Position numbers and translations under genes: made by a program. 64,000 nucleotides of DNA from contig NC_009515.1 in the NCBI RefSeq assembly GCF_000016525.1, positions 1,142,501-1,206,500 of the forward strand, written 5' to 3'. This DNA is from Methanobrevibacter smithii ATCC 35061 (GTDB taxonomy: Archaea; Methanobacteriota; Methanobacteria; Methanobacteriales; Methanobacteriaceae). Below, in pieces: positions 427 to 61,598 of this stretch. The stretch's first letter is position 1; each line of letters begins with the position of its first letter. Below the pieces are notes generated by a model. It did no database searches, was not told the origin of the DNA, and was given only the letters and a program-made list of their open reading frames with translations.

Positions 427-510
427 AATATCACAATAAAAATAAATAATTAATTATATATTTAAGATTTAAATTATATAAATCTAATACAAAAATATAA
501 GTGAAATAAC

Positions 511-1398: not shown

Positions 1399-1404
1399 AT
1401 TAAT

Positions 1405-3546: not shown

Positions 3547-3547
3547 A

Positions 3548-28950: not shown

Positions 28951-29970
28951 TTAAGATATTATTATGTTGTTTCCTGTTTGGAAATCGTTCCAAGAAGATG
29001 TAATGATGTATTTTCCACTCATTAACCTGATAGTTAATGAAGCAAAACCATTATCATCAGTTACTTTGTGATAGAATACGCCGTTTACATTAAATGATAC
29101 GTTTTGATTAGCTAATGGATTACCTTGACCATCTAATGTCTGTGCAGTAAAGTTACTGCCATCTCCATAAGTCATATTAAGGTCACTAGTAACTAAAGTA
29201 GGTAAAACAGTTACAGTATTACCTAAGTCTAATCCTTCGTACATTGTTGTAATGACATATTCTCCAGGTCTTAAACTGATTCCTAAACTTATTACACCAT
29301 TTTCATCAGTAGTTCTGGTGTAAAATACTCCATTGATGTTGAAGGTTACATTTTTATTTACTGCTAAACTTCCGTTTTTATCATAGATAGTTGCTTGGAA
29401 CTTAGATGCATTCATGTAATACTTAGTTAAGTCATTTTGTACTATTAATGATTTTACAGTTATGTTAAATCCTTGTTGTTCACCAGTTACAGGGTTGTAA
29501 GCTGTTAAAATATATGTTCCAGGTCTTAACATAATACCTAAATCCGCTACACCATCATTGTTAGTAGTTTTAGTGTAGAAAACACCATTAATGTTAAATT
29601 TAACCTGAGTATTAGCTAATACTTTTCCATCACTGCCCATGAATTTAGCATAGAATCTTGTAGCATTTTGATACATTTTAACTAAATCATCAGCTATAAT
29701 ACTTGAATTAATAGTAACAGTAATATTTTTAGAGATTTTACTATAGAAAGCAGATCCGTTATAAGTTACGGTTACTGGATATACATTGGAATCTAAATTA
29801 AGACCCATGGAAGCAGTACCATTAGCATCAGTTGTTTTAGCATATATTACACCATTAATACTGAAGTATATAGTAGCATTGACTATTGGTTTACCTTGGA
29901 AATCTGTTAATTTGGCAATTAAACGAGTTCCATCATGGTAAAACATTTCAACATCACTAACATCCAAGTT
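28951..29970 (-). repeat. Four-module C-terminal cassette of the adhesin
   Basis: Four consecutive modules of about 80 residues, each with a xDLxxxYxxxxxF start, FNINGVFYxKTT core and PGxYIIT strand. They align in the same order with the four modules at the N terminus of the protein at 4315-7482, including a shared YNPxTxEQ insertion in module 2. Confidence 0.7.
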
Positions 29971-32900
29971 TACATTTATATTTGGAATTACAGTTACGTT
30001 TCCTTTTTTAGTCATGGAATCATATTTAGCATCACCAGAGTAAACAGTAGTGATATTATAATCTCCAGCACTTAAACCAGAAACAATTACATTTGCAGTT
30101 CCGTCAATTACATTTGCAGTGTATTTTTTACCGTCAATTTCAACAGTAACTGTTCCGGTTGCATCTTTAGGTAAATCTACACCAATAGTGGAATTTACTC
30201 CCTCTTTAATTTCAGGAACAGAAATATCCATATTGTAATCAGATATTTTGGATACACTAAATTCAGCATCAGCAGTTGCTTCATTATAATTGTTATCTCC
30301 AGCGTATTTAACAGTTACAGTATAATCATCTGCTTTAAGGCCAGATATTGTTTTAACTGCTTTACCATTTTCAATAGCTGCAGTGTAATCTTCACCATTA
30401 ACAGTAATAACTACTTCACCAGTAGCATCACTAGCTAATTTAACACTAATAACAGCATCTTCGCCAACTTTAATATTATTAACATTAACCACAACAGATG
30501 AATCTATTTTATTAACTTTGAAATCACCGTTTTCAGTAACAATATTGTAATTATCATCTCCTGCCCAAACAGCAGCAAATGCATAAGTACCAGCAGCTAA
30601 TTTATCACCAGTAGCAATACCTTTACCGTCAGTAACTTTAACAGTGTATTCTTTACCATTAACAGTAACAATCACATTACCAGATAAAGGAGCACTGTTA
30701 ACACCAGTTAAGGTAGCTTCAATAACAAATCCGTTACCATAATCCACATCAGCAATAACAACACCTAAAACAGGTTGTGCTTTAGCAACATTAACACCTT
30801 TAGCAATTTCAACAGCAGTGTATTTATCGTCACCAGCATATTTAACAACAACCACATGACTGCCAGCAGTTAAATCTTTAACAACTTGTGTTGCTTTACC
30901 ATCATTAATACCTGCAGTGTAAGAAGTTCCATCAACAGTAATAATTACTTCACCAGTAGCATCATCAGGTAAAACCGCATCAACAGTTAAATCTCCACCA
31001 AATACAATGTCATTAACAGTTACATCCATAGTAGAATCAACTTTAGACACAGTAAAGCTGGAAGTAGCAACTGCAGCATTATAATTGTTATCACCAGAAT
31101 ATTTGGCAACTACATCATAATTGCCTGCTTTAAGATCAGATACAGATACAGTAGCCCTACCGTTAACAACATTCGCAGTATAATCTTTACCATTTACAGT
31201 AACAGTCAATTCACCAGTAGCATCACTAAATAATTTAACAGTAATAACAGCATCTTCACCAACATTGATATCTTTAACAGTTATACCAATAGCAGAATCT
31301 ACTTTATAAACATTAAATTTACCGGAATCACTAACTTCATTATAATTATTGCTTCCTGCGAATCTAGCATTGAAGTTATAAGATCCAGCAGCTAATTTAT
31401 CAGCATGGAAAGTACCTTTACCATTAACAATAGCTACAATGTAGTTTTTACCATTAACTGTTACAATTATATTAGTATCTAAAGGAGCATTGTTAACACC
31501 AGTTAAAACAGCATTAATAGTAAATACATTACCATAATCCACACTGTCGATAATAACATTTAAAGCTGGATTTGCTTTAGCAACATTAACACCTTTAGTA
31601 ACTTCAGCAGCATTATAATTATCATCACCAGCATATTTAACCGCTACAGTGTAATCACCAGCTTCAAGACCGGATACAGTTACAGTAGCTTCACCATTTT
31701 CAATAGCTACATGGTAATCTACACCATTAACAGTAATAACTACTTCACCAGTAGCATCAACAGGTAAAACCGCATTAACAATTAAATCTTCACCAAATAC
31801 AATATCCTCAACAGTTACATCCATTTCAGGAGTTATTTTAAGTACACTAAATTCAGCACTGCCAGTTGCTTCATTATAATTATTATCTCCAGTATATTTA
31901 ACCGCTACAGTGTAATCACCAGCTTTAAGATCAGATACAGTTACACTAGCTACACCATTTTCAATAGCTGCAGTGTAATCTTCACCATTAACAGTAATAA
32001 CTACTTCACCAGTAGCATCACTAGCTAATTTAACACTAATAACAGCATCTTCACCAACTTTAATATCACTAACAGCAACATCAATAGCAGAATCTATTTT
32101 ATTAACTTTGAAATCACCGTTTTCAGTAACAATATTGTAATTATCATCTCCTGCCCAAACAGCAGCAAATGCATAAGTACCAGCAGCTAATTTATCACCA
32201 GTAGCAATACCTTTACCATCAGTAACTTTAACAGTGTATTCTTTACCAGCAACAGTAACAATCACATTACCAGATAAAGGAGCACCATTAACACCAGTTA
32301 AGGTAGCTTCAATAACAAATCCGTTACCATAATCCACATCAGCAATAACAACACCTAAAACAGGTTGTGCTTTAGCAACATTAACATTTTCAGCAACTTC
32401 AACACCAGTGTATTTATCATCACCGACATATTTAATAGCTACAATGTAATCACCAGCAGCTAAACCACTAATAGTTCCAGTAGCTTTACCATTTTCAATA
32501 GCTACATGATAATCTACACCATTAACAGTAATAACTACTTCACCAGTAGCATCACCAGGTAAAACCACATCAACAGTTAAATCTCCACCAAATACAATGT
32601 CATTAACAGTTACATCCATAGTAGAGTCAACTTTAGATACAGTAAAGCTGGAAGTAGCAACTGCAGCATTATAATTGTTATCACCAGAATATTTAACAGC
32701 TACATCATAAGTACCTGCTTTAAGATCAGCCACTTTTACATTAGCTACACCATTAACAACAGTTTCAGTATAATCTTTACCATTTACAGTAACAGTTACG
32801 CTACCAGTAGCATCACTAAGCAATTTAACACTAATAACAGCATCTTCACCAACATTGATATCTTTAACAGCAACATCAATAATTGAATCTACTTTAGCAA

Positions 32901-35900
32901 CACTAAATTTACCAGAATCACCAACAGCATTGTAATTATCATTTCCTGCCCAAGCAGCAGTAAAGTCATAAGTACCAGCAGCTAATTTAACACCAACAGC
33001 AGTACCTTTACCATTAACGATATTTACAGAGTAATCTTTATTATTAACAGTAACAATCACATTACCATTTAAACCAATAGCATCAACACCAGTTAAAGCA
33101 ACATTAATGTTAAATACTCCATCATAACCAACATCTGAAATAAGCACATTTAATGCAGGGTCTGCTTTAGATACAGTTAATAAAGCATTGCTTACACCAG
33201 GCAAGTATTTATCATTACCTGCAAATGCTGCAGATATAGTATAATCACCTGCATCCAATTCACGTAATGGAAGTTTTCCAAATCCGTTTTCAATATCTAC
33301 AGGATAAACTTTACCATTTACATTAACAGTAACTATTGAACCGTCAATATCAGAAGGTAAAGTGATTATGACAAGTCCGTTTTCACCAAAAGTAATATCT
33401 TCAACATGTATATTTAAGTTAGCTAAAACTTTATCTACTTTAAAGACTGTTGAGTTTTCAGCAGCAACATAATGATTATCACCAGAATAACTTGCAGATA
33501 CATCATAAGTACCATAAGCTAAATCTTGGAAGTAGAATTTAGCTTCACCATTGTAAATCGGCAATATATAATCAATACCATTTAAAGTTAAAGTTATAAG
33601 ACCAGTTGCATCTTTAGGTCCGGTTACAGTAATTATTTCAAGATCTCCAACAGTAATATTCAATGCACCAACAGTTAAATCAGGAGTTGCTTTTGATACA
33701 TTTAAGATACCTGTGTTAATATGAACTTCAGGTCCATCATAAACAATACTAACTGTTTTATTAATAACATCATTTATTTTGTAAGTTGCAACATAAGAAC
33801 CATTTAACAAGCTATTTGCTTTACAAACAACAACATCCTCACCATTATAAACTGAAAATGATAAGTCCTGATTAGCTACAAGAACACCATCAACTGTAAT
33901 AATAGCATGTAAAGTTACAACATCACCGTAACAAACATTTACAGTTTTATTATCTAAAACAGTTATAATTACTCCACCATCACTTGAAATAGTTTCTATA
34001 CCAGCCAAATTAATAATTGGAGCTTTATTTTCAGTGTAATTACTATAATTATTACCATTAATACTCAATAAGCCATTTATATTGCTGTAAATAATATCAG
34101 CTTTTTGTGCTTTATTATTATCAAAGTCTGAATCACTAATTCTTAAATCACCATTACTATAAATAGCACCACCATCAACACCAGCAGTGTTGTTTATAAA
34201 GTTAGTAGCATAAACAGTAGCAGTTATTTTAGTATATGCAGGTTCAAATCCAATAGCTCCCGCTTTAACAGTAGCTGTGTTGTTTATAAAGTTAGAATTG
34301 CTAATATCAACGGTTCCTTCATTAATCCAAGCTGCTCCACCATATTGAGCTTTGTTATTAGTAAAGTTGGAATTTATAATGGTACCTGAAATAGGTATAT
34401 TACCCTGAGTTACTACAAGAGCTCCACCATTGTTATTATTAGGAGTCATATTACCTTTACCAAATGCTAAATTATTATCAAATACAGAGTTGGAAATAGA
34501 GTAATTAGATCCCCATACAAACATTGCTCCACCATATAAAGCAGAGTTATTAACAAATTTAGTTCCATCTATGTCGATGAAATTTGTAGCACTACTAGAT
34601 TCTCCACCCATTACAGATAAAGCTCCACCCCAACGGCCAGAGTTATTAACAAAATAGGAATCAGAAATAGTAGCATCACCAATAGTAGCTACAGCACCAA
34701 CTAATAAATTACCGTTTTTATAATTTTTAATGTTGTTTGTAAAGTTAGATTTTGAAATATCCAATTTACCATTTTTCCAGTTGTAAATAGCTGCTCCACC
34801 ATGATCAACATTATCCATAGCACGGATGTTACGAACAAGGATATCGTTTCCATCAAATGCAGAGTTAGTAACTTGTAAATCATCCCAGTTAAAGATAGCT
34901 CCACCATAATAATTAGCAGCATTATCTTCAAATGCAGAATTATCAACTACTAATTTACCATTATTAATTATAGCTCCACCTATTGAAGTTGCAGTATTAT
35001 TAACAAAAGTAGAATTACCTACAACAGAGTTATCACCCTCATTATAAACTGCACCAGCATCTTCTGCAGTGTTATTAGCAAAAGTAGAATTACCTACAAC
35101 AAAACCAATACCATAATTATAAATGGCACCACCTTTACTTGTAGCAGTGTTATTAGCAAAAGTAGAATTACCTACAACAAAACCACGGCCACCATTCAGG
35201 ATTGCACCAGCACCGTCTGCAGCACTATTATTCACAAAAGTAGAATTACCTACAACAAAACCAATACCATAATTAAAGATTACTCCACCATTACTTGTAG
35301 CAGTGTTATTAGCAAAAGTAGAATTACCTACAACAAAGCAATCAGCAGAGTTATAAATTGCACCACCAATCTTAGCAGTGTTATTAGTAAAAGTAGAATC
35401 ATCTAAAACTAAACCATAAGCATCGTTCATGATTGCTCCACCATATTTTGCAGTATTATTAACAAAATTAACATGCACTAAATCTAAATTACCAAAGTTA
35501 TAAATAGCTCCACCATTATCAGCTTTACCATTAGTTAAAGTAACATTAGTTAAAGTAACAGCAAATCCTCCATCAATCTCGAAAATTCTTCCTAAATTCT
35601 TAGCATCAATAGTATGACCTTTACCATCAATTCTAATATTTTTATTAATAATTACACCATTTACAAAATTAGCAGCTTCATCATCAGTCATTACAACATT
35701 TTGATTAAGAGTTAAAGTACCAGTAACAAGACCAATAGCATTTTGTAAATCAGTAAAATTCTCAATACCTAAATCAAGGTTGCCTCCAAATCCAACATAA
35801 TTAAATATGGCATCAGGAGTATTGTTAACAAATTCAGTATTTCTAACAGTTAAATCTTTCACATTAACTATAGCACCACCATAGGATGCACTATTGTTAA

Positions 35901-38900
35901 TGAATTTAGAACCGGAAATTGAAACTTCAGGATTACCCTTAACAGTACTAATATCAATAGCTCCACCTTCAACATCAGCAGAGTTATTAACAAATTCTGA
36001 ATCTGTAATTTTAATGTTACCTTCACAAATATCAATAGCTCCACCATATTGAGCTTTATTATTAGTAAAGTTAGAACCAGTAATAATTCCAGCAATAGCT
36101 TTATTAGTATCAGTTACTACAATAGCTGCTCCATTGTTATTATTTGGAGTCATATTACCTTTACCAAATGCAGTATTCTTATCAAATACACAATCAGACA
36201 CAGTAAAGTCAGATCCCCATACAAAAATACCTGCACCATATAATCCACCATTCTCTTTAAAAGTAGAACCAGATACAGTTAAAGTATTTACATCATCACC
36301 AGCAATCAAAGCACCAGAAGTAGTAATAGCTCCACCCCAACGGCCAGCATTATTAACAAAGTAAGAATCGGAAATTGTAGCATCACCAATAGTAGCTACA
36401 GCACCTACTAAACGGTCACCATTCTTATAATTCTTAATATTATTAGTGAAATTAGAACCAGATACAGTTAAAATACCGTCATACCAGTTATAAATCGCTG
36501 CACCACCATAATCAACACTAGCAGAACCACGATTAACAATATCATTAGAATCAAATACAGAATCAGAAACAACCAATTCACCATTGTTAAATACAGCACC
36601 ACCATAACCATCAGCAGCATTATCACTTAATTTAACATCACTTAAAGTTAAAGAACCATCATTATAAATAGCTCCACCCTTATCAGCTTTACCATTAATC
36701 AAAGTAGCATTAGTTAAAGTAACAGCAAATCCTTCACCAATACTGAAAATCCTACCTAAATTCTTAGCATCAATAGTATGGCCTTTACCATCAATAACAA
36801 TATCCTTATTAATAGCAACACCACCTACAAATCCAGCAGCTTCATCATCAGTCATTGCAATATCAGAATCAAGAGTTAAAATACCATCAACAAGATCAAT
36901 AGCATTTTGCAAATCAGTGAATGTTTCAATACCTAAATGTAATTCTTTAGAGTTATGAATAGCTTGTGGAGTATTATTAACAAATTTAGAATCTTTAACA
37001 GTAACTACAGGATTATTTATTGCAGAATCAATATCAATAGCTCCACCTTCAACATCAGCAGAGTTATTTTCAAATAATGAATCAGAAATTGCAATATTAC
37101 CCTCACAAATATAGATAGCTCCACCATATTGAGCTTTATTATTAGTAAAGTTAGAACCAGTTATAGCTCCAGTAATATCTTTACCAGTATCAGTTACTAC
37201 AATAGCTGCTCCATTGTTATTATTTGGAGTCATATTACCTTTACCAAATGCAGTATTCTTATCAAATACACAATCAGACACAGTAAAGTCAGAGCCAGCT
37301 ACAAAAATACCTGCACCATATAATCCACCATTTTCTTTAAAAGTAGAACCAGATACAGTTAAAGTATTTACATCATCACCAGCAATCAAATAACCTGAAG
37401 CTGAGATAGCTCCACCCCAACGGCCAGAGTTATTAACAAAGTAAGAATCAGAAATTGTAGCATCACCAATAGTAGCTACAGCACCAACTAAACGGTCACC
37501 ATTCTTATAATTCTTAATATTATTAGTGAAATTAGAACCAGATACAGTTAAAATACCGTCATACCAGTTATAAATCGCTGCACCACCATAATCAACACTA
37601 GCAGAACCACGATTAACAATATCATTAGAATCAAATACAGAATTACCGACAACTAAATGACCATTGTTGAATACAGCACCACCATAACTATCAGCAGCAT
37701 TATCACTTAATTTAACATCACTTAAAGTTAAAGAACCATCATTATAAATAGCCCCACCCTTATCAGCTTTACCATTAATCAAAGTAGCATTAGTTAAAGT
37801 AACAGCAAATCCTTCACCAATACTGAAAATCCTACCTAAATTCTTAGCATCAATAGTATGGCCTTTACCATCAATAACAATATCCTTATTAATAGCAACA
37901 CCACCTACAAATCCAGCAGCTTCATCATCAGTCATTGCAATATCAGAATCAAGAGTTAAAATACCATCAACAAGATCAATAGCATTTTGCAAATCAGTGA
38001 ATGTTTCAATACCTAAATGTAATTCTTTAGAGTTATGAATAGCTTGTGGAGTATTATTAACAAATTTAGAATTTTCAACAGTTAAATCATTTACATTACA
38101 TATAGCTCCACCTATTTTAGCAGCAGAGTTATTAATGAAGTTTGAATTTGTAATCTTTGAATCAACATTTGTAAAAATAGCTCCAGCAACAGGTGCTTTA
38201 TTACCTACAAATGAAGAATTATTTATGGATACAACTAAATCTTTAACACTTGCATGAGAAAAGCCAACAGCTCCACCTTCAGCAGTAGCTATGTTATTTT
38301 CAAATACAGAATCAGTAATAGTTACAAATCCTTTATTGAAGTAAGCAGCACCACCATATTGAGCTTTATTATTAGTAAATTTAGAACCGGAAATAGTACC
38401 AGTGATTGGTTCATTGAATCTACTTACTTGAGATACAACAAGAGCACCACCATTATTATTATTTGGAGTCATATTACCTTTACCAAATGCAGTATTGTTA
38501 TCAAATACACAATCAGCTATATTGTAATTAGATCCCCATATGTAAACAGCACCCGCATATAAAGCAGAATTATCTTTAAATATAGTATTAGATACTGTTA
38601 AAGTACTTGAATTTTTCCTTAATTCAGCACCAGTAGCTGAAATAGCTCCACCCCAACGGCCAGAGTTATTAACAAAGTTAGAACCACTAACAGTAGCATT
38701 ACCAATAGTAGTAATAGCACCAACTAAATTATCCCCATTCTTATAATTCTTAATATTATTAGTAAAATTAGAATTAGTTACTTTTAATGTGCCCTCTTTC
38801 CAATTATAAATCGCTGCACCACCATAATCAACACTAGCAGAACCACGATTAACAATATCATTAGAATCAAATACAGAATCAGAAACAACCAATTCACCAT

Positions 38901-41900
38901 TATTGAATACAGCACCACCATAACTATCAGCAGCATTATCACTTAATTTAACATCACTTAAAGTTAAAGAACCATCATTATAAATAGCCCCACCCTTATC
39001 AGCTTTACCATTAATCAAAGTAGCATTAGTTAAAGTAACAGCAAATCCTTCACCAATACTGAAAATCCTACCTAAATTCTTAGCATCAATAGTATGGCCT
39101 TTACCATCAATAACAATATCCTTATTAATAGCAACACCACCTACAAATCCAGCAGCTTCATCATCAGTCATTGCAATATCAGAATCAAGAGTTAAAATAC
39201 CATCAACAAGATCAATAGCATTTTGCAAATCAGTGAATGTTTCAATACCTAAATGTAATTCTTTAGAGTTATGAATAGCTTGTGGAGTATTATTAACAAA
39301 TTTAGAATTTTCAACAGTTAAATCATTTACATTACATATAGCTCCACCTATTTTAGCAGCAGAGTTATTAATGAAGTTTGAATTTGTAATCTTTGAATCA
39401 ACATTTGTAAAAATAGCTCCAGCAACAGGTGCTTTATTACCTACAAATGAAGAATTATTTATGGATACAACTAAATCTTTAACACTTGCATGAGAAAAGC
39501 CAACAGCTCCACCTTCAGCAGTAGCTATGTTATTTTCAAATACAGAATCAGTAATAGTTACAAATCCTTTATTGAAGTAAGCAGCACCACCATATTGAGC
39601 TTTATTATTAGTAAATTTAGAACCGGAAATAGTACCAGTGATTGGTTCATTGAATCTACTTACTTGAGATACAACAAGAGCACCACCATTATTATTATTT
39701 GGAGTCATATTACCTTTACCAAATGCAGTATTGTTATCAAATACACAATCAGCTATATTGTAATTAGATCCCCATATGTAAACAGCACCCGCATATAAAG
39801 CAGAATTATCTTTAAATATAGTATTAGATACTGTTAAAGTACTTGAATTTTTCCTTAATTCAGCACCAGTAGCTGAAATAGCTCCACCCCAACGGCCAGA
39901 GTTATTAACAAAGTTAGAACCACTAACAGTAGCATTACCAATAGTAGTAATAGCACCAACTAAATTATCCCCATTCTTATAATTCTTAATATTATTAGTA
40001 AAATTAGAATTAGTTACTTTTAATGTGCCCTCTTTCCAATTATAAATCGCTGCACCACCATAATCAACACTAGCAGAACCACGATTAACAATATCATTAG
40101 AATCAAATACAGAATCAGAAACAACCAATTCACCATTGTTGAATACAGCACCACCATAACTATCAGCAGCATTATCACTTAATTTAACATCACTTAAAGT
40201 TAAAGAACCATCATTATAAATAGCCCCACCCTTATCAGCTTTACCATTAATCAAAGTAGCATTAGTTAAAGTAACAGCAAATCCTTCACCAATACTGAAA
40301 ATCCTACCTAAATTCTTAGCATCAATAGTATGGCCTTTACCATCAATAACAATATCCTTATTAATAGCAACACCACCTACAAATCCAGCAGCTTCATCAT
40401 CAGTCATTGCAATATCAGAATCAAGAGTTAAAATACCATCAACAAGATCAATAGCATTTTGCAAATCAGTGAATGTTTCAATACCTAAATGTAATTCTTT
40501 AGAGTTATGAATAGCTTGTGGAGTATTATTAACAAATTTAGAATTTTCAACAGTTAAATCATTTACATTACATATAGCTCCACCTATTTTAGCAGCAGAG
40601 TTATTAATGAAGTTTGAATTTGTAATCTTTGAATCAACATTTGTAAAAATAGCTCCAGCAACAGGTGCTTTATTACCTACAAATGAAGAATTATTTATGG
40701 ATACAACTAAATCTTTAACACTTGCATGAGAAAAGCCAACAGCTCCACCTTCAGCAGTAGCTATGTTATTTTCAAATACAGAATCAGTAATAGTTACAAA
40801 TCCTTTATTGAAGTAAGCAGCACCACCATATTGAGCTTTATTATTAGTAAATTTAGAACCGGAAATAGTACCAGTGATTGGTTCATTGAATCTACTTACT
40901 TGAGATACAACAAGAGCACCACCATTATTATTATTTGGAGTCATATTACCTTTACCAAATGCAGTATTGTTATCAAATACACAATCAGCTATATTGTAAT
41001 TAGATCCCCATATGTAAACAGCACCCGCATATAAAGCAGAATTATCTTTAAATATAGTATTAGATACTGTTAAAGTACTTGAATTTTTCCTTAATTCAGC
41101 ACCAGTAGCTGAAATAGCTCCACCCCAACGGCCAGAGTTATTAACAAAGTTAGAACCACTAACAGTAGCATTACCAATAGTAGTAATAGCACCAACTAAA
41201 TTATCCCCATTCTTATAATTCTTAATATTATTAGTAAAATTAGAATTAGTTACTTTTAATGTGCCCTCTTTCCAATTATAAATCGCTGCACCACCATAAT
41301 CAACACTAGCAGAACCACGATTAACAATATCATTAGAATCAAATACAGAATCAGAAACAACCAATTCACCATTATTGAATACAGCACCACCCATAGTAGC
41401 AGCAGTATTGTTTATAAAATTAGTGTTATATGCATATACAGAACCAGTGTTATATATTGCACCACCTATATCTGCATTACCATTAATTAAATTAGCATTA
41501 TATATATTTAATTTATCAGCTGTTGAGGTAACATTAAATATTCTACCTAAATTATTAGCATTAATAGTAAAACCATCACATTTAAGATTAACAAGATGGT
41601 CTACAACAATACCATTTACAAACTTATCAGCTTCACTAGCCAACATAGTTACATTAGAACTTAAATAGATATCACCTTCAACCATGTTTATAGCTTTTTG
41701 CAAATCAGTAAAGGTTTTAATTTCACCCATATTTAAAGTACCCCTATAATAGCTGTAAATCCTATTATTAGTAAATGTTGAATCAGCATCAATAGTTAAT
41801 GTATATTCATTATAAATAGCACTGCCTTCTTTTGCAGAGTTATTGGTAAATATGGAATTTTTAATATCCAAAATAGCATTACCTGTTGTTCCACCTTCAT

Positions 41901-43026
41901 ATACAGCACCACCCTGATTGGATGCAGTATTGTTTATAAAAGTACAGCTGTCAACACTGGCACTGGAAACACCATTATTATCATCTCCTAATTCATAAGC
42001 AGCACCATTATCTGCAGTATTGTTTATAAAATTACAATCAGATATTGTACCTTCACAGCCATACCATGTAAGAAGAGCACCGACATTAGGATTTCCACTT
42101 CCATAACCAACACCTTTATTGTTGGTGAAATTGGTTCCGGATATTTTGAAAGTAGAACCTATGACATTTACAGCTGCCCCTTGGAATGCTCTATTTGAAT
42201 CAAATACTGAATTTTCAATGATAATCTGATTTTTACCAGCATTAGTGTAACCTAAAGAAGTTACAGCTCCACCATAACATCCACTGTTATTTCTAAAGTA
42301 AGATTTTGAAATTTTAGTATATCCTGTTACGACTACTACACCAGCTACAAGATCTCCAACATTATTGTCACGAATAACCATATTTTTATGGTTATTGATT
42401 ATTTGTGAATTAGAAATTAATAATGAAGCACCATTATCTGCATAGATAGCTGCACCACCATTGCCAATATTTTGACTTCTGAATTGCACATCATTTCCAT
42501 CAAAAACAGAACTGTCTACAATACAAGTTCCAGTAGTGTAAATTGCACCACCATATTTATAGACAGTATTGTTTTTGAAATTCACATTATTTACTATTAA
42601 AGTAGAACCATCAAAGTAAACAGCCCCACCATTACTTACAATTCCTGAACTATCAGAAACAGGATTTGCATTAATCAAAGTCAAATCATTTAATGTTAAT
42701 GTAACAGAAGAATCTTTTACTACAAAAATACTTCCATGACCATTAGCATCAATTGTATGACCATTTCCGTTAATTATAGTATTCTTTGTAATAGAAATAC
42801 CATAATTATCTATTTCATCATCTCCATGTTTGACATCATAAGTAAGCTCAAATACATTTTGAGAATTATCAATGTCTGTTTGTAAAGATGTGAAATCTTT
42901 TTGAATTTCATTTGGCGTTTGGTAAGTATCATCAGCATTAATAGATACGTCTTCAGCAGAAACTGCAGACATACTTAAAAGTACTAATAAAAGAACTAAC
43001 ACACCAATATTCTTTTTTAGACTCAT
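28951..43026 (-). CDS. Giant adhesin-like surface protein (beta-helix plus Ig-like repeats)
   Basis: A 4691-codon gene. It begins with signal peptide MSLKKNIGVLVLLLVLLSM...VSA. Residues about 60-3000 are parallel beta-helix (Pmp/pectate-lyase-like) repeats rich in NNTA..GGAI and FxNN. They include three nearly identical 412-residue units and two related 360-residue units. Residues about 3010-4350 are Ig-like domains (TVNGxxY, AGTYxxxxxYxGDxxY) in a repeating three-domain order. The last 340 residues are four NINGVFYxKTT modules shared with the protein at 4315. GGAGAATAATATC before ATG 43026 is the ribosome-binding site. There is no transmembrane anchor or sorting signal at the end. ISM1 lies 35 bp upstream. 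The likely role is attachment to cells or host surfaces, as proposed for M. smithii adhesin-like proteins. Confidence 0.9.
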   Translation of the reverse strand: MSLKKNIGVLVLLLVLLSMSAVSAEDVSINADDTYQTPNEIQKDFTSLQTDIDNSQNVFELTYDVKHGDDEIDNYGISITKNTIINGNGHTIDANGHGSIFVVKDSSVTLTLNDLTLINANPVSDSSGIVSNGGAVYFDGSTLIVNNVNFKNNTVYKYGGAIYTTGTCIVDSSVFDGNDVQFRSQNIGNGGAAIYADNGASLLISNSQIINNHKNMVIRDNNVGDLVAGVVVVTGYTKISKSYFRNNSGCYGGAVTSLGYTNAGKNQIIIENSVFDSNRAFQGAAVNVIGSTFKISGTNFTNNKGVGYGSGNPNVGALLTWYGCEGTISDCNFINNTADNGAAYELGDDNNGVSSASVDSCTFINNTASNQGGAVYEGGTTGNAILDIKNSIFTNNSAKEGSAIYNEYTLTIDADSTFTNNRIYSYYRGTLNMGEIKTFTDLQKAINMVEGDIYLSSNVTMLASEADKFVNGIVVDHLVNLKCDGFTINANNLGRIFNVTSTADKLNIYNANLINGNADIGGAIYNTGSVYAYNTNFINNTAATMGGAVFNNGELVVSDSVFDSNDIVNRGSASVDYGGAAIYNWKEGTLKVTNSNFTNNIKNYKNGDNLVGAITTIGNATVSGSNFVNNSGRWGGAISATGAELRKNSSTLTVSNTIFKDNSALYAGAVYIWGSNYNIADCVFDNNTAFGKGNMTPNNNNGGALVVSQVSRFNEPITGTISGSKFTNNKAQYGGAAYFNKGFVTITDSVFENNIATAEGGAVGFSHASVKDLVVSINNSSFVGNKAPVAGAIFTNVDSKITNSNFINNSAAKIGGAICNVNDLTVENSKFVNNTPQAIHNSKELHLGIETFTDLQNAIDLVDGILTLDSDIAMTDDEAAGFVGGVAINKDIVIDGKGHTIDAKNLGRIFSIGEGFAVTLTNATLINGKADKGGAIYNDGSLTLSDVKLSDNAADSYGGAVFNNGELVVSDSVFDSNDIVNRGSASVDYGGAAIYNWKEGTLKVTNSNFTNNIKNYKNGDNLVGAITTIGNATVSGSNFVNNSGRWGGAISATGAELRKNSSTLTVSNTIFKDNSALYAGAVYIWGSNYNIADCVFDNNTAFGKGNMTPNNNNGGALVVSQVSRFNEPITGTISGSKFTNNKAQYGGAAYFNKGFVTITDSVFENNIATAEGGAVGFSHASVKDLVVSINNSSFVGNKAPVAGAIFTNVDSKITNSNFINNSAAKIGGAICNVNDLTVENSKFVNNTPQAIHNSKELHLGIETFTDLQNAIDLVDGILTLDSDIAMTDDEAAGFVGGVAINKDIVIDGKGHTIDAKNLGRIFSIGEGFAVTLTNATLINGKADKGGAIYNDGSLTLSDVKLSDNAADSYGGAVFNNGELVVSDSVFDSNDIVNRGSASVDYGGAAIYNWKEGTLKVTNSNFTNNIKNYKNGDNLVGAITTIGNATVSGSNFVNNSGRWGGAISATGAELRKNSSTLTVSNTIFKDNSALYAGAVYIWGSNYNIADCVFDNNTAFGKGNMTPNNNNGGALVVSQVSRFNEPITGTISGSKFTNNKAQYGGAAYFNKGFVTITDSVFENNIATAEGGAVGFSHASVKDLVVSINNSSFVGNKAPVAGAIFTNVDSKITNSNFINNSAAKIGGAICNVNDLTVENSKFVNNTPQAIHNSKELHLGIETFTDLQNAIDLVDGILTLDSDIAMTDDEAAGFVGGVAINKDIVIDGKGHTIDAKNLGRIFSIGEGFAVTLTNATLINGKADKGGAIYNDGSLTLSDVKLSDNAADSYGGAVFNNGHLVVGNSVFDSNDIVNRGSASVDYGGAAIYNWYDGILTVSGSNFTNNIKNYKNGDRLVGAVATIGDATISDSYFVNNSGRWGGAISASGYLIAGDDVNTLTVSGSTFKENGGLYGAGIFVAGSDFTVSDCVFDKNTAFGKGNMTPNNNNGAAIVVTDTGKDITGAITGSNFTNNKAQYGGAIYICEGNIAISDSLFENNSADVEGGAIDIDSAINNPVVTVKDSKFVNNTPQAIHNSKELHLGIETFTDLQNAIDLVDGILTLDSDIAMTDDEAAGFVGGVAINKDIVIDGKGHTIDAKNLGRIFSIGEGFAVTLTNATLINGKADKGGAIYNDGSLTLSDVKLSDNAADGYGGAVFNNGELVVSDSVFDSNDIVNRGSASVDYGGAAIYNWYDGILTVSGSNFTNNIKNYKNGDRLVGAVATIGDATISDSYFVNNAGRWGGAITTSGALIAGDDVNTLTVSGSTFKENGGLYGAGIFVWGSDFTVSDCVFDKNTAFGKGNMTPNNNNGAAIVVTDTNKAIAGIITGSNFTNNKAQYGGAIDICEGNIKITDSEFVNNSADVEGGAIDISTVKGNPEVSISGSKFINNSASYGGAIVNVKDLTVRNTEFVNNTPDAIFNYVGFGGNLDLGIENFTDLQNAIGLVTGTLTLNQNVVMTDDEAANFVNGVIINKNIRIDGKGHTIDAKNLGRIFEIDGGFAVTLTNVTLTNGKADNGGAIYNFGNLDLVHVNFVNNTAKYGGAIMNDAYGLVLDDSTFTNNTAKIGGAIYNSADCFVVGNSTFANNTATSNGGVIFNYGIGFVVGNSTFVNNSAADGAGAILNGGRGFVVGNSTFANNTATSKGGAIYNYGIGFVVGNSTFANNTAEDAGAVYNEGDNSVVGNSTFVNNTATSIGGAIINNGKLVVDNSAFEDNAANYYGGAIFNWDDLQVTNSAFDGNDILVRNIRAMDNVDHGGAAIYNWKNGKLDISKSNFTNNIKNYKNGNLLVGAVATIGDATISDSYFVNNSGRWGGALSVMGGESSSATNFIDIDGTKFVNNSALYGGAMFVWGSNYSISNSVFDNNLAFGKGNMTPNNNNGGALVVTQGNIPISGTIINSNFTNNKAQYGGAAWINEGTVDISNSNFINNTATVKAGAIGFEPAYTKITATVYATNFINNTAGVDGGAIYSNGDLRISDSDFDNNKAQKADIIYSNINGLLSINGNNYSNYTENKAPIINLAGIETISSDGGVIITVLDNKTVNVCYGDVVTLHAIITVDGVLVANQDLSFSVYNGEDVVVCKANSLLNGSYVATYKINDVINKTVSIVYDGPEVHINTGILNVSKATPDLTVGALNITVGDLEIITVTGPKDATGLITLTLNGIDYILPIYNGEAKFYFQDLAYGTYDVSASYSGDNHYVAAENSTVFKVDKVLANLNIHVEDITFGENGLVIITLPSDIDGSIVTVNVNGKVYPVDIENGFGKLPLRELDAGDYTISAAFAGNDKYLPGVSNALLTVSKADPALNVLISDVGYDGVFNINVALTGVDAIGLNGNVIVTVNNKDYSVNIVNGKGTAVGVKLAAGTYDFTAAWAGNDNYNAVGDSGKFSVAKVDSIIDVAVKDINVGEDAVISVKLLSDATGSVTVTVNGKDYTETVVNGVANVKVADLKAGTYDVAVKYSGDNNYNAAVATSSFTVSKVDSTMDVTVNDIVFGGDLTVDVVLPGDATGEVVITVNGVDYHVAIENGKATGTISGLAAGDYIVAIKYVGDDKYTGVEVAENVNVAKAQPVLGVVIADVDYGNGFVIEATLTGVNGAPLSGNVIVTVAGKEYTVKVTDGKGIATGDKLAAGTYAFAAVWAGDDNYNIVTENGDFKVNKIDSAIDVAVSDIKVGEDAVISVKLASDATGEVVITVNGEDYTAAIENGVASVTVSDLKAGDYTVAVKYTGDNNYNEATGSAEFSVLKITPEMDVTVEDIVFGEDLIVNAVLPVDATGEVVITVNGVDYHVAIENGEATVTVSGLEAGDYTVAVKYAGDDNYNAAEVTKGVNVAKANPALNVIIDSVDYGNVFTINAVLTGVNNAPLDTNIIVTVNGKNYIVAIVNGKGTFHADKLAAGSYNFNARFAGSNNYNEVSDSGKFNVYKVDSAIGITVKDINVGEDAVITVKLFSDATGELTVTVNGKDYTANVVNGRATVSVSDLKAGNYDVVAKYSGDNNYNAAVATSSFTVSKVDSTMDVTVNDIVFGGDLTVDAVLPDDATGEVIITVDGTSYTAGINDGKATQVVKDLTAGSHVVVVKYAGDDKYTAVEIAKGVNVAKAQPVLGVVIADVDYGNGFVIEATLTGVNSAPLSGNVIVTVNGKEYTVKVTDGKGIATGDKLAAGTYAFAAVWAGDDNYNIVTENGDFKVNKIDSSVVVNVNNIKVGEDAVISVKLASDATGEVVITVNGEDYTAAIENGKAVKTISGLKADDYTVTVKYAGDNNYNEATADAEFSVSKISDYNMDISVPEIKEGVNSTIGVDLPKDATGTVTVEIDGKKYTANVIDGTANVIVSGLSAGDYNITTVYSGDAKYDSMTKKGNVTVIPNINVNLDVSDVEMFYHDGTRLIAKLTDFQGKPIVNATIYFSINGVIYAKTTDANGTASMGLNLDSNVYPVTVTYNGSAFYSKISKNITVTINSSIIADDLVKMYQNATRFYAKFMGSDGKVLANTQVKFNINGVFYTKTTNNDGVADLGIMLRPGTYILTAYNPVTGEQQGFNITVKSLIVQNDLTKYYMNASKFQATIYDKNGSLAVNKNVTFNINGVFYTRTTDENGVISLGISLRPGEYVITTMYEGLDLGNTVTVLPTLVTSDLNMTYGDGSNFTAQTLDGQGNPLANQNVSFNVNGVFYHKVTDDNGFASLTIRLMSGKYIITSSWNDFQTGNNIIIS
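30210..33400 (-). repeat. 795-bp (265-residue) super-repeats, four copies, of three Ig-like domains
   Basis: Equivalent positions (ACCATAATCC and its counterparts) recur at 30736, 31531, 32326 and, diverged, about 33121, a spacing of 795 bp. Each unit carries three domain types in fixed order, recognisable as xDVDYGNxF, DIxVGEDAVI and DIVFGxDL. Boundaries are approximate. The period is a multiple of three. Confidence 0.75.
35520..37682 (-). repeat. Two 1080-bp (360-residue) beta-helix units
   Basis: Matching landmarks at 36049 and 37129 are 1080 bp apart. These units share their start with the 1236-bp units but carry a YDGILTVSGSNF variant and a shorter second half. The right-hand boundary to the 1236-bp units is near 37683; the left one is approximate. 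Confidence 0.7.
37683..41390 (-). repeat. Three nearly identical 1236-bp (412-residue) tandem units
   Basis: Landmarks recur at exactly 1236-bp steps (38605, 39841 and 41077, for example). I saw only isolated differences between copies, such as ATTATTGAAT near 38902 versus ATTGTTGAAT near 40138. The array starts near 41390, where the upstream sequence diverges. The period is a multiple of three, so gain or loss of a unit keeps the frame. Confidence 0.85.
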
Positions 43027-43061: not shown

Positions 43062-43090
43062 GAGTCTGTAAAATTTTATAGGCTTATTTG
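43062..43090 (+). repeat. Left terminal inverted repeat of the insertion sequence
   Basis: 29 bp, an exact inverted copy of 44414-44442. The transposase stop codon (43084-43086) lies inside it. Confidence 0.93.
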
Positions 43091-44289
43091 ATTTTAATGT
43101 GTTTTTCAGTCCAATTTTGCATTTGATAGTCTAAAAATGTCAGGATTCCATTTTTGGTTTTGTATATTTTCTTTATTTTTTCAGGATTGGTTTGTCTGTA
43201 GTAATTTTCGACTTTATTTGATGTTTTTTCTATATTTTCATCATCAAGATATTCTACGTATCTGTGGAAGTGATTTATGATATGTTTTCTTATGAAATCT
43301 TTTAAAACAACTGGTATGGCCGTATATTTTTGTAAATATTGTTTAAATTGTTCTATTGCTTCTTTTTTTGAGTTTTGTCTGAAACAGTTTTTTAATTCTT
43401 GTGCATTTTCGTAAATATGGTCTCTTTGTTTTCCATTAATCTTGTTTCTTCTACAATATACTTTTAATTTATGGTTTATTGTTTGAAACAGATGAAATAT
43501 GCACAATTGATGTTTTACTTCTATTTCATCTGCTACATTACGATACATTGGGAATAAATCGGTTGTTAGGCAAATGAATGGTTTATTTTCTGTTGATTCT
43601 AAGATAAATTTTTTCGTGTTTTTTGGTATTCTGCGACGTACTATTCGTTCTGTGACTGGAATATTGAGTATTGCATCAAATAAAGTTAATCTGTAGTGTC
43701 TAGTTCCATTAAGTCTTAAAAATTGCTCATCATATAAATAATAGCCAGAATATTCAAATTTTTCATTGCTGATGCTTTCTTCGTGATTTTTGTCAGACCA
43801 GTTCTTGATTGTTTGATGAGATATTCTGATTCCAAGGAATATTTCAAAGTATTTACTTATTTTACGAAGTGATTGGTACCCTATTTTCATTATTCCTGGA
43901 ATTTTATCCATTATTTCTTGTAAAAATTGTTTATTTTCACCAATTAATGGATTATTGTATATTCCGAATTTTTTTCCACATTTTTTGCATTGATATTGCT
44001 GTTCTTTGAATTCTGTTGTTTTTCCATTAGTATTTTGTTTGTTTTTCTTTATTGTGCCTTTTTTGATTATTTTGTGGCTTCCACAAACTGGACAAATGGG
44101 ATTATCATATTTAAAAGTATTATTTTCATCTAAAAATAGTTTATGATTAGTATTTTCAAAATTAGGTGTTTTATTCAATCTTTTTGAAATAATTTTTTCT
44201 TGATCAATTTTTTCATCAAAAAAATCATAAAGTTTAAGTTGTATGAAGTCTATATTACTATTGAGGGCAGATTTGTTTTGTTTGGTCAT
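43084..44289 (-). CDS. DDE transposase of ISM1-type element
   Basis: A 401-residue protein. An N-terminal zinc ribbon (CPVCGSHKIIKKG ... YQCKKCGKKFG) at about residues 70-110 is followed by a helix-turn-helix-like region (YQSLRKISKYF ... HQTIKNW) and a DDE core. Candidate acidic residues are Asp in YLYDEQFLRL, Asp in LTTDLFPMYRN and Glu in NKVENYYRQTN. A CIFHLFQ segment after the second Asp resembles several zinc-ribbon transposase families. It is intact and has its own AT-rich start region inside the element. Confidence 0.9.
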   Translation of the reverse strand: MTKQNKSALNSNIDFIQLKLYDFFDEKIDQEKIISKRLNKTPNFENTNHKLFLDENNTFKYDNPICPVCGSHKIIKKGTIKKNKQNTNGKTTEFKEQQYQCKKCGKKFGIYNNPLIGENKQFLQEIMDKIPGIMKIGYQSLRKISKYFEIFLGIRISHQTIKNWSDKNHEESISNEKFEYSGYYLYDEQFLRLNGTRHYRLTLFDAILNIPVTERIVRRRIPKNTKKFILESTENKPFICLTTDLFPMYRNVADEIEVKHQLCIFHLFQTINHKLKVYCRRNKINGKQRDHIYENAQELKNCFRQNSKKEAIEQFKQYLQKYTAIPVVLKDFIRKHIINHFHRYVEYLDDENIEKTSNKVENYYRQTNPEKIKKIYKTKNGILTFLDYQMQNWTEKHIKIK

Positions 44290-51477: not shown

Positions 51478-51792
51478 AAAATTAATTATGAATTAAATTT
51501 TTTATAAAATTAACTCATAATCAGTTAAAAGATTTAAATGAACAATTCATTGTTTAGGAAAGCTCAGCTGGTCTAAAGTAATTATATATTATCATCAATC
51601 TTCAATAATGGTTTCCAATAGTTTTATCATTTCCCAATATGTAAAAAAAACTTGAACATTATTCTTTTATTTGCTTTTCTTACAAACTTAATCCTTTAGC
51701 GAATACTCTTATGAAAATTGATACTTTTTATTTTATGACTTAAAAAATTATTAGAATAGCAGTTATTATATGTAAATTTCAAAATTCTTGAG

Positions 51793-51846
51793 AAACATAA
51801 GAAACATAAGAAACATAAATTTTTTTTATGTTTTTTATGTTTTTTA
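51793..51846 (+). repeat. 54-nt hairpin repeat, copy 1
   Basis: Three AAGAAACAT-type units, a T run, then three TTTTTATGT-type units. As + strand RNA the arms pair over about 22 bp including G-U wobbles; on the minus strand those become A-C mismatches. It is identical over 54 nt to 52115-52168. Confidence 0.7.
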
Positions 51847-52015
51847 ATAAAACACATATCATCAACCTTAATCATCAACCAACATGAATTTTTTTATTTT
51901 TAATTAAAATAGCTTAAATCATAAAATAAGTAATTTAAAGAATTTTAAAAAATTAATCGTCAACTACTGAATATTCTTTAATCAAATAATAGATAATTTA
52001 AGATTCTAATTTTTA

Positions 52016-52069
52016 AATTTTTTCGGGATTGATTTGTCAGCAGCAGTTATCTAATTTGTTAGATGTTTT
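52016..52069 (-). pseudogene. Remnant of an ISM1-type transposase
   Basis: On the minus strand these 18 codons read KTSNKLDNCC-stop-QINPEKI. The intact transposase at 43084-44289 has KTSNKVENYYRQTNPEKI: 12 of 18 positions are identical, and the internal stop (TGA for AGA) and two Cys (TGC for TAC) differ from it by one or two bases. Flanking sequence is only faintly similar. Confidence 0.7.
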
Positions 52070-52114
52070 TTATGGAATTTATGTTTTCTAATGAGAATTT
52101 TTAAATATTCTGAA

Positions 52115-52168
52115 AAACATAAGAAACATAAGAAACATAAATTTTTTTTATGTTTTTTATGTTTTTTA
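52115..52168 (+). repeat. 54-nt hairpin repeat, copy 2
   Basis: Identical to 51793-51846, with the stem extended to about 24 bp by the following TG. It ends 27 bp before ATG 52196 of the AAA ATPase gene, so it would lie in that gene's leader or promoter. Confidence 0.7.
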
Positions 52169-52195
52169 TGAAATGTATTATCAGAGGTTATAAAC

Positions 52196-53539: not shown

Positions 53540-53646
53540 GAAAAATTGTAAAATAATATACTGAAAAAATGTAAAATAATATATGGAAAAATTGTAAAAT
53601 AATATATGGAAAAATTGTAAAATAATATATGGAAAAATTGTAAAAA
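53540..53646 (+). repeat. 23-bp tandem repeat, about 4.6 copies
   Basis: Units GAAAAATTGTAAAATAATAT plus a 3-nt tail start at 53540, 53563, 53586, 53609 and 53632. The last runs directly into the AAGGAG ribosome-binding site of the gene at 53662. The first two copies differ slightly and the later ones are identical. The rest of 53384-53661 is AT-rich with nothing else seen. Confidence 0.85.
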
Positions 53647-53661
53647 TAAGGAGTAATCACT

Positions 53662-54936
53662 ATGGTTGTTAAATATTTACCGAGAATATTGGATAAAGAT
53701 TTGGAAAAATATCTTACAATGATTGGTGCGATTCTCATTGTTGGACCGAAATGGTGTGGCAAAACAACTACTGCCGAACAGCATGCTAAAAGTGTATTAA
53801 AACTACAAGACAAAGATAATTATAAAACAAATATGATGTGGGCAGACATAGAACCTTCCAGATTATTGAAAGGAGAGAAACCACGATTAATTGATGAATG
53901 GCAGGTGGCTCCTGTATTGTGGGATTCCGTCAGAACAAGCGTGGATGAAAGCGAAGGATATGGACTATATATTTTAACCGGTTCAACAGTGGTCGATGAA
54001 GACAGCATCATGCACTCAGGAACCGGAAGAATCCATAGAATGCTGATGAGGCCTATGAGTTTGTATGAAAGCGGTGAATCAAACGGGCAAATTTCAATTA
54101 TGGACTTATTTGACAATCCCGACATTAACATTAATAACTGCGAATCCAGTTTAACAATAAACGATTTGATATTTGCTGCATGCCGCGGAGGCTGGCCAGA
54201 TTCATTGAATCAAAAAACCAGAGAGGGCAAACTTTTCGTTGCATATAATTATTTGGAAAACATTTGTAACACAGATGTTTCTGCTGTTGATGGGGTTAAA
54301 AGAGACCCTGATAGGGTAAGAGTATTATTACGTTCGCTTGCAAGAAATAATTCCACACTGGCTAAAGACCAAACCATTATAGATGATATTAATGCTAATT
54401 TTATGGATATAAGTAGACCCACATACTATTCATATGTTGATGCCTTGAAAAAATTATTTGTAATTGAAGACAACCGAGGATGGTCCCCAAACATCAAATC
54501 CAAATCAGCAATCAGATCAGGAAATAAAAAAGTATTCATTGATCCTTCAATTGCCGTAGCAGCATTGAATGCAAATCCTAAATCAATGGCGAATGATTTG
54601 GAAACATTCGGATTTATTTTTGAAAATTTATGCATTCGTGACTTAAGTGTTTATACAAATTCCCATGGCGGAAAAGTTTCATATTACCATGACAAGTCAG
54701 ATTTAGAAATTGACTGTGTTGTTCACTTGAGGGACGGAAGATATGCATTAATAGAATGCAAGCTTGGAAGTGAAAGAATAAACGAAGGTGCCCAAAATCT
54801 CCTTAAAATCAAGGAGTTAATTGAAAAGAATAAAAAATTGGATAATCCTACATTTCTTGCAGTGCTTACTGGTGGAAAATATGCATACACTCGTCCGGAT
54901 GGCGTTAAAGTAATTCCAATCGGCTGTTTAAAATAG
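53662..54936 (+). CDS. ATPase with C-terminal nuclease-like DUF4143 domain
   Basis: A 424-residue protein of the widespread AAA_14/DUF4143 family. GPKWCGKTTTAEQ is the Walker A (near residues 29-37), RLIDEWQVAPVLW is the Walker B region, and LTGSTVVDE the sensor. The C-terminal half has a winged-helix region (RPTYYSYVDALKKLFVIED) and ends with a nuclease-like core: DLEIDCVV and ALIECKLG (DxE-ECK spacing as in PD-D/ExK folds). Function is unknown in this family. AAGGAGTAATCAC precedes the start. It lies in the accessory segment. Confidence 0.85.
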   Translation: MVVKYLPRILDKDLEKYLTMIGAILIVGPKWCGKTTTAEQHAKSVLKLQDKDNYKTNMMWADIEPSRLLKGEKPRLIDEWQVAPVLWDSVRTSVDESEGYGLYILTGSTVVDEDSIMHSGTGRIHRMLMRPMSLYESGESNGQISIMDLFDNPDININNCESSLTINDLIFAACRGGWPDSLNQKTREGKLFVAYNYLENICNTDVSAVDGVKRDPDRVRVLLRSLARNNSTLAKDQTIIDDINANFMDISRPTYYSYVDALKKLFVIEDNRGWSPNIKSKSAIRSGNKKVFIDPSIAVAALNANPKSMANDLETFGFIFENLCIRDLSVYTNSHGGKVSYYHDKSDLEIDCVVHLRDGRYALIECKLGSERINEGAQNLLKIKELIEKNKKLDNPTFLAVLTGGKYAYTRPDGVKVIPIGCLK

Positions 54937-60455: not shown

Positions 60456-61598
60456 ATGAGTAAAGATGACAGAAGTGGCCTTAACCCTTTTACTGGAAAA
60501 TCTCATTATGACAATATAGATGATGACAAATTCTTAAATGAATGTTATAATGAGTATTACAATAAGATAGATGGCCATGAAATATTAGACCAGACACAAG
60601 AAGGCCAATTAATATTAAAGGTTACTTCAAATCTAATAACTGCTGTTGAAGATTATTTAGCTAAAATTGGAAGATCAGATTATACAGCAGATTATTATGA
60701 CTGGGAAGTCCATTTAATTGCAGATGAGGACGAAAATGCAATGTGCATCCCTGGAGGAAAAATCATCGTACTTTCAGGAATTCTGCCAATAGCCAATACT
60801 GAAGAAAAAATAGCATTTATCCTAGGTCATGAAATGGCACATGCTCTTTTAGACCACAGCAGAACCCAGTCCAGTGTTCGAAATACAAAAAATACAATAA
60901 CAACCCTTTCCAGAATTGGAAGCCTCGGACTTATTCTTTTAGGTGAAGAAGAATTAGGACTTGCTACAAGTGCAATTACAAATATAGCAGATATCGGATC
61001 TGAACTTTTTTTAATACAACCATTTGGAAGATCCCAAGAAATAGAAGCAGACAAACTTGGAATGATGATAATTCATTGGGCAGGTTATAACATAAGGAGA
61101 ATTCCGGCATTCTGGCAATCAATGAGTGAAGAAAATGCCAATAATTTTGATTTCTTTTCTACCCACCCCTCTGATGATAAAAGAATTGCTGCAATGAATG
61201 AAATGATATTTGAAATAGAAAACAGAACAGACTTTTATAGTCAGCCAGTTTTATCCAACAGTACATCAACAAGTTCAAATATACTTGAAAAAGTACCTAC
61301 ATTCGAAACACCCAGTGCAGGAGTGTCTGGAATAGCTGCAACTAAAAATAGCCATTCTGCAAATACCTGCAAATATTGTGGAAATATTGTAAAAATAGAT
61401 GATATATTCTGCACCAACTGCGGAAAAAAAATAAAAACGGAATTAAGATGCAATAAGTGCGGACATCCAGTAAATGATGATGATATATTCTGCACCAACT
61501 GCGGAAACAAATTAAATCATGAATTAAAATGCAGCAATTGCGGAAGTACAGTAAATAAAGATGATACTTTTTGCTTCAATTGTGGAAATAAAATCTAA
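60456..61598 (+). CDS. M48 metallopeptidase with three C-terminal zinc ribbons
   Basis: A 380-residue protein. The M48 zinc site HEMAH is at residues 125-129 (ILGHEMAHALLDH), with SQEIEADKLG as the third ligand and FFSTHPSDDKRI near the end of the domain. There is no N-terminal signal or clear membrane segment apart from a short hydrophobic stretch near 150-180. From Cys305 on there are three double-CxxC ribbons in a row (CKYCGN..CTNCGK, CNKCGH..CTNCGN, CSNCGS..CFNCGN). GGTGGTAAA precedes the start. The substrate is unknown. Confidence 0.88.
   Translation: MSKDDRSGLNPFTGKSHYDNIDDDKFLNECYNEYYNKIDGHEILDQTQEGQLILKVTSNLITAVEDYLAKIGRSDYTADYYDWEVHLIADEDENAMCIPGGKIIVLSGILPIANTEEKIAFILGHEMAHALLDHSRTQSSVRNTKNTITTLSRIGSLGLILLGEEELGLATSAITNIADIGSELFLIQPFGRSQEIEADKLGMMIIHWAGYNIRRIPAFWQSMSEENANNFDFFSTHPSDDKRIAAMNEMIFEIENRTDFYSQPVLSNSTSTSSNILEKVPTFETPSAGVSGIAATKNSHSANTCKYCGNIVKIDDIFCTNCGKKIKTELRCNKCGHPVNDDDIFCTNCGNKLNHELKCSNCGSTVNKDDTFCFNCGNKI

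What the first reader, a model, noticed from the sequence alone, without database searches (positions are those of the whole stretch)
37683..41390. Nearly identical in-frame 1236-bp array: likely copy-number variation in adhesin length
Three copies differ by only isolated bases while the adjoining 1080-bp copies are clearly diverged, so the array was expanded or homogenised recently. All periods (1236, 1080, 795) are multiples of three, so recombination would give shorter or longer intact adhesins.
Basis: partly seen in the sequence, partly recalled or inferred. Interest (0 to 1): 0.55.

Follow-up and report, generated by a model that had tools for sequence, protein, structure and literature searches.

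The report
Freshly tripled domain in archaeal adhesin
A gut methane-making archaeon carries a giant surface protein in which one 412-amino-acid domain sits three times in a row as practically identical DNA, while its sister species has that domain once and in another place, so the protein seems to grow, shrink and reshuffle its domains by recombination.

Summary
Inside one intact 4691-aa ORF, window 37660-41391 (-) is four 24-bp boxes separated by three 1212-bp spacers. The spacers are 100% identical; the only variable site is a synonymous Asn codon in the boxes (T,C,T,C). The gene matches the longest known adhesin-like protein (ALP) of Methanobrevibacter smithii (YP_001273761; PMC11532034 reports seven beta-helix and 18 Ig-like domains). 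AlphaFold models each 412-aa unit as a capped beta-helix. A syntenic ortholog in the nearest relative held (single contig; probably Ca. M. intestini) is 4963 aa and has this module once, at a different position. The copies are therefore recent, and module number and order differ between sister species. The longest exact in-gene repeat (1260 bp) is far above any other of 125 sampled ORFs from ALP loci of four single-contig genomes (next 463 bp). Best explanation: unequal homologous recombination between beta-helix units, with seams in a conserved GGAVFNNG box, changes adhesin length in whole domains. Variation among M. smithii strains, and an assembly artefact, could not be tested. It works like bacterial Periscope Proteins but multiplies beta-helix domains rather than the stalk. 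Ordinary in principle.

The parts
28951..43026 (-). ORF of the adhesin-like protein, 4691 aa
   Evidence: length equals YP_001273761, the largest M. smithii ALP, in PMC11532034
41716..43026 (-). unit 1: N-terminal hydrophobic segment and first beta-helix-like part, unique
   Evidence: 94.5% identical to the ortholog in G011; hydrophobic segment seen by eye
41392..41715 (-). cap of unit 2, native to this position (95.1% to the cap in G011), about 63% to the other caps of the gene
37660..41391 (-). array of period 1236: box-spacer-box-spacer-box-spacer-box
41368..41391 (-). box 1 (24 bp, GGAVFNNG), Asn codon AAT
40156..41367 (-). spacer copy 1 (1212 bp): core X, tail, next cap
   Evidence: all three spacers identical
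40132..40155 (-). box 2, Asn codon AAC
38920..40131 (-). spacer copy 2 (1212 bp)
38896..38919 (-). box 3, Asn codon AAT
37684..38895 (-). spacer copy 3 (1212 bp)
37660..37683 (-). box 4, Asn codon AAC; followed by the diverged core of unit 5
36925..38004 (-). unit 5 (360 aa), orthologous by position and sequence to unit 4 of G011 (94.4%); overlaps the end of the array by its cap
35761..36924 (-). unit 6 (388 aa), orthologous to unit 5 of G011 (95.0%)
34990..35467 (-). 78-bp (26-aa) repeats, 6.3 copies, in unit 7: they stand between cap and end piece, where G011 carries its single X module
29707..33669 (-). Big_3_5 Ig-like stalk with older superrepeats (lags 795 and 1590)

Best explanation
The array is a recent amplification of one beta-helix module (core X + tail + next cap, 1236 bp = 412 aa) inside a long M. 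smithii adhesin-like protein. Units that share a cap and a conserved 24-bp box (GGAVFNNG) misalign during homologous recombination; unequal exchange or gene conversion then adds, removes, homogenises or moves whole modules without breaking the frame. The result would be a surface protein whose number of beta-helix domains, and so its reach and number of binding surfaces, changes in steps of 412 aa. Shown: identity, frame, seam in the box, domain prediction, different number and order of modules in the sister species. Inferred: the recombination mechanism, that copy number varies within M. smithii today, and that the domains bind a ligand.
For: Three identical 1212-bp spacers and one synonymous variable site. 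On a star tree, zero changes in 3 x 1212 sites bounds divergence per lineage below about 0.0008, about 3% of the divergence per lineage seen in unit 1 between the two species, if no homogenisation took place. The syntenic ortholog in G011 (4963 aa, frame open) has unit 1, cap 2 and units 5 and 6 as orthologs but only one X core, placed before the end piece, and a different core in unit 2. Breakpoint in unit 2: cap 2 is native (95% to G011) up to the box and X follows. Homogenisation: caps 3-6 of the window are 99.4-100% identical to each other but at most 92.8% to any cap of G011, while the mid-cores of units 5 and 6 each find their G011 ortholog at 94.2 and 96.8%; G011 shows the same among its own units (unit 3-4 mid-core 97.8%, unit 4-5 start of core 98.6%). 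Each unit starts with a helix cap followed by beta-helix strands (mean pLDDT 82.6). The T,C,T,C pattern of boxes is not what a single triplication would leave (T,T,T,C or T,C,C,C): it fits at least two exchanges (reasoning).
Against: No second M. smithii strain was available, so present-day variation is not shown. Identical copies can also be kept by conversion at constant number. T,C,T,C could also come from one recurrent synonymous change. X core is 98.35% identical between the species against 94-95% around it, so X may have arrived from outside before it multiplied; the order of events is not resolved.
Confidence: 0.74

Rival explanations
1. Homogenisation at constant number: the three units are old and are kept identical by gene conversion, so copy number does not vary in M. 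smithii.
For: Conversion-like homogenisation is visible in caps and cores of both species.
Against: In G011 the module occurs once and elsewhere, so number and place changed at least once since the split; identity covers the whole 1212 bp and stops at the seam.
Confidence: 0.16
2. Assembly artefact: reads of one or two real copies were laid out as three, or a longer array was collapsed to three.
For: Three copies are exactly identical except one base; a 3.7-kb array exceeds single reads of the early platforms (established knowledge); PMC6868369 (abstract seen in the listing) warns of such errors in tandem repeats.
Against: Frame kept, single closed contig, a variable site that distinguishes the copies; PMC11532034 counts seven beta-helix domains in the database entry, but that is the same genome.
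Confidence: 0.08
3. The X module is a mobile cassette with a dedicated recombinase acting at the 24-bp box.
For: Seam in a conserved box and a different position in the sister species.
Against: No recombinase or transposase family among the ten neighbouring proteins scanned; the box is part of the beta-helix coding consensus and lies in ordinary homology; no X sequence outside this gene above 67% identity in the own genome apart from short matches.
Confidence: 0.02

Closest known systems
Periscope Proteins (SasG, Rib, Sgo_0707, CdrA; Whelan et al. 2021, PMC8201768, passages read)
   Same: Surface protein with long, highly identical in-frame tandem repeats that should allow change of length by intragenic recombination.
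   Different: Bacterial in that paper (the word archaea does not occur in its text); there the repeats form a stalk of small globular domains under an N-terminal ligand domain. Here the repeats are 412-aa beta-helix units in the N-terminal half and the Ig stalk shows no fresh repeats; number variation among strains is not shown.
M. smithii adhesin-like proteins, subgroup IA, YP_001273761 (Gupta and Seedorf 2024, PMC11532034, Results parts 1-2 and passages read)
   Same: It is that protein by length (4,691 aa, largest ALP), with seven beta-helix repeats followed by 18 Ig-like (ABD) domains.
   Different: In the passages read the paper does not speak of near-identity at DNA level, the seam, the sister species or recombination ('recombination' occurs 0 times).
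Right-handed beta-helix polysaccharide lyases and adhesins (PL6 alginate lyases, chondroitinase B, PfbA, Ag43)
   Same: Fold: best Foldseek hits of the two-unit model.
   Different: 10-12% identity and low TM-scores over the two-unit model (0.19-0.24 by query for the 11 hits with E up to 0.001); enzymatic residues not examined.

Membership tests
[quoted passage not shown]
   412-aa units, DNA 1235-1236 of 1236 identical
Periscope Proteins | repeat number varies between strains of a species | not testable with these tools
   only one M. smithii genome held; between sister species three against one
Periscope Proteins | repeats form a stalk that projects an N-terminal ligand domain | tested here: inconclusive
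   repeats are beta-helix units above an Ig-like stalk; whether they project or bind is unknown
Periscope Proteins | cell-surface protein | tested here: inconclusive
   hydrophobic N-terminus by eye; PMC11532034 assigns ALPs a membrane anchor
M. smithii ALP, subgroup IA | N-terminal anchor, then beta-helix domains, then repeats of Ig-like domains | tested here: met
   (by eye); length match
site-specific cassette or mobile element | recombinase gene nearby and copies elsewhere in the genome | tested here: not met

The most novel reading that the evidence does not exclude
M. smithii and its sister species hold their ALPs as one recombining pool: beta-helix modules with common seams are swapped between positions and between species and then multiplied, so that this giant adhesin is an archaeal variable-length and variable-content receptor, the beta-helix counterpart of Periscope Proteins.
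Probability: 0.3. Interest if true: 0.55.

Novelty: new member of a known kind. Interest (0 to 1): 0.34.

Why it matters
ALPs take up about a tenth of the M. smithii genome (PMC11532034) and almost nothing is known of how they change. This gene offers a countable marker: the unit number could be read in isolates and in long-read stool metagenomes, to ask whether a human-gut archaeon tunes adhesin length as bacteria do.

Tried and rejected
Phage origin: no match of the array in 50,697 phage records, none in viral contigs. Plasmid origin: only distant beta-helix proteins in 4 plasmid records, 29-31% identity. Named relatives in genome contigs: 14 loci, 29-41% identity, none close, so the sister genome could not be named by this route. 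X as a uniquely transferred block: its 98.35% identity to G011 is above its surroundings, but 217 of 813 overlapping 666-bp windows in 37 reciprocal-best ORF pairs of the ALP loci reach that value too, mostly in a few whole genes; so such similarity is common at ALP loci and I do not rest the case on it. Selection for protein sequence alone as the cause of identity: rejected, since synonymous sites are identical too. A pair of 99.9% repeats in G004 (L090, lag 1679, not a multiple of three) was set aside because an ORF there runs into a stretch of N. The first repeat comparison by BLAST underrated the array (91% because the match ran on into diverged flanks) and was replaced by longest exact repeats. 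Literature: searches found no paper on copy-number change in this gene; the library lacks most subscription journals, and the M. smithii pan-genome paper (PMC3063581) is not held.

Limits of the samples: the ORFs compared (31 from G000, 39 from G011, 27 from G014, 28 from G029) come only from stretches chosen by Big_3_5 matches, include some non-ALP neighbours, leave out a few small matches (e.g. G000 near 91 kb, 885 kb, 920 kb and 1510 kb), and in G014 and G029 cover only part of the listed matches; overlapping stretches there (L100/L101, L111/L112, L114/L115, L117/L118) can count one ORF twice, cut by stretch ends; ORFs with N were dropped.

Full report
Where it lies. The window is part of a single-contig genome of 1,853,160 bases, which in size and in the 4691-aa ORF agrees with Methanobrevibacter smithii NC_009515 (1.853 Mbp, longest ALP 4,691 aa; PMC11532034, Results part 1 and passages read). 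The strain name ATCC 35061 is recalled. The finding lies in the ORF 28951-43026 (-), translated without a stop. Pfam finds 13 Big_3_5 (Ig-like) stretches in it and nothing over its cut-off in the asparagine-rich N-terminal half. The paper gives YP_001273761 seven beta-helix domains and 18 Ig-like domains.

The array. With lag 1236 the sequence agrees from 37660 to 41391 except at one site. The tract can be written as four 24-bp boxes, each coding for GGAVFNNG, separated by three spacers of 1212 bp that are letter for letter the same. The one variable site is the third base of an Asn codon in the box: AAT, AAC, AAT, AAC in the direction of translation. On both sides similarity drops at once: upstream to cap 2, about 63% identical to the other caps, downstream to the core of unit 5. 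The claim of 'isolated bases' reduces to one synonymous base.

How unusual. I took ORFs of at least 600 aa from stretches with Big_3_5 matches in four single-contig genomes of the genus: 31 in G000, 39 in G011, 27 in G014, 28 in G029. The longest exact repeat inside an ORF has a median of 18 to 29 bp per genome. This gene has 1260 bp; the next are 463 and 462 bp (G029, G014), and in the own genome 277 bp. The six longest per genome all lie at lags that are multiples of three. Fresh in-frame repeats thus occur in other ALPs, but this one is an outlier. The sample is partial (see Tried and rejected).

The sister species. Of 67 genomes of the genus, 2 (this one and G011) carry the unique N-terminal 1600 bp at E up to 1e-20. 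G011 is a single contig of 1,951,395 bases. From the literature the nearest relative of M. smithii is Ca. M. intestini, ANI 93.95% between the two representatives (PMC8727293, passages read); G011 is unnamed and its identification is inferred. Its ortholog lies between the same two neighbour genes and codes for 4963 aa. Order of units in the window: U1, cap2-X, X, X, U5, U6, U7 with 26-aa repeats and end piece. Order in G011: U1, cap2-W, U3, U4, U5, U6 with X and end piece (X and W are my names). U5 of the window corresponds to U4 of G011 (94.4%), U6 to U5 (95.0%), U1 to U1 (94.5%), cap 2 to cap 2 (95.1%). The X core is present once in G011, in front of the end piece, at 98.35% over 666 bp (dS 0.040 against 0.12-0.14 around it). 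So number and position of the module both changed after the split.

Homogenisation. Caps 3 to 6 of the window are 99.4-100% identical to each other and at most 92.8% to any cap of G011; the mid-cores of units 5 and 6, in contrast, find their best match in the G011 ortholog (94.2 and 96.8%) or nearly so (units 5 and 6 of the window are 94.9% to each other). In G011, units 3, 4 and 5 are partly homogenised among themselves. The tail and cap of the X units return in unit 5-6 at 99.0% over 393 bp. The X unit of the window looks like a mosaic of X core, a stretch like the tail of unit 2 of G011 (FINNSA..GGAICNV.DLTV, seen) and the tail of unit 5.

Mechanism. Long homology, an intact frame and seams in a conserved coding box point to ordinary homologous recombination between misaligned units (established for bacterial repeat adhesins, PMC8201768). 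The T,C,T,C boxes are not what a single triplication of a T-X-C precursor gives; two unequal exchanges, one of which carried box 1 inward, would give it. This is an inference from four letters. No recombinase family was found in ten neighbouring proteins; they include a helicase with an ERCC4 domain, Mur ligases, a DHH protein, a Ham1-like protein and two ATPases.

Structure. Two consecutive units (824 aa, five related stretches of the window as alignment) were modelled with mean pLDDT 82.6 and pTM 0.69; each unit begins with a helix of ten residues followed by regular short strands. Foldseek finds PL6 alginate lyases first, all right-handed beta-helices, with low TM-scores over the two-unit model. 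This supports one capped beta-helix per unit, so that a gain or loss changes the protein by a whole domain. Ligand binding is not shown. ALPs are abundant in vesicles of M. smithii and M. intestini (PMC12134236, passages read), but I did not see this protein named there.

Strain variation. Nothing held here tests it. One hint in print: the AlphaFold model B9AFH2 was matched to this ALP at 78% identity and has only two beta-helix domains (PMC11532034, passage); its source strain and completeness were not checked.

Verdict. The finding is real, recent and probably variable. It is a new member of a known kind: intragenic domain amplification in surface adhesins, here in an archaeon and with beta-helix units.

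Noticed in passing
L051, L054, L061, L063, L067 (G000) against L073, L076, L082, L081, L089 (G011): Some ALP orthologs of the two sister species are 97-100% identical over long stretches while others are 80-90%: 217 of 813 overlapping 666-bp windows of 37 pairs are at least 98.35%. This looks like exchange of ALP genes between the species.
   Followed up: partly
L079 (G011, 1951-aa ORF) and L081 (G011, 2063-aa ORF): Two ALPs about 111 kb apart in G011 give identical Big_3_5 scores at corresponding places, suggesting a recent dispersed duplication.
   Followed up: no
34990-35467: 78-bp, 6.3-copy array (26 aa per copy) in unit 7 of the same gene, standing where G011 carries its X module.
   Followed up: partly
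51791-52170: Intergenic AT-rich 9-bp tandem repeats that recur in two clusters (51791-51846 and 52115-52170).
   Followed up: no
53540-53645: 23-bp tandem repeat, 4.6 copies, just before the ORF 53662-54936 of a DUF4143/AAA_14 ATPase.
   Followed up: no
61380-61594: 81-bp coding repeat, 2.7 copies, at the end of ORF 60456-61598; the unit spells a CxxC pair like a zinc ribbon (motif read by eye).
   Followed up: no
43084-44289: 401-aa ORF directly upstream of the adhesin gene without any Pfam match at 1e-5.
   Followed up: no
38254-38562, 39490-39798, 40726-41034 (+): Three antisense ORFs of 102 aa, one per repeat copy: a by-product of the repeats.
   Followed up: no
L045 (M. filiformis DSM 11501), about 2574-3610: In-frame-sized repeats of 351 bp at 97% identity, about three copies, within the 1157-aa ORF at 447-3917.
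   Followed up: no
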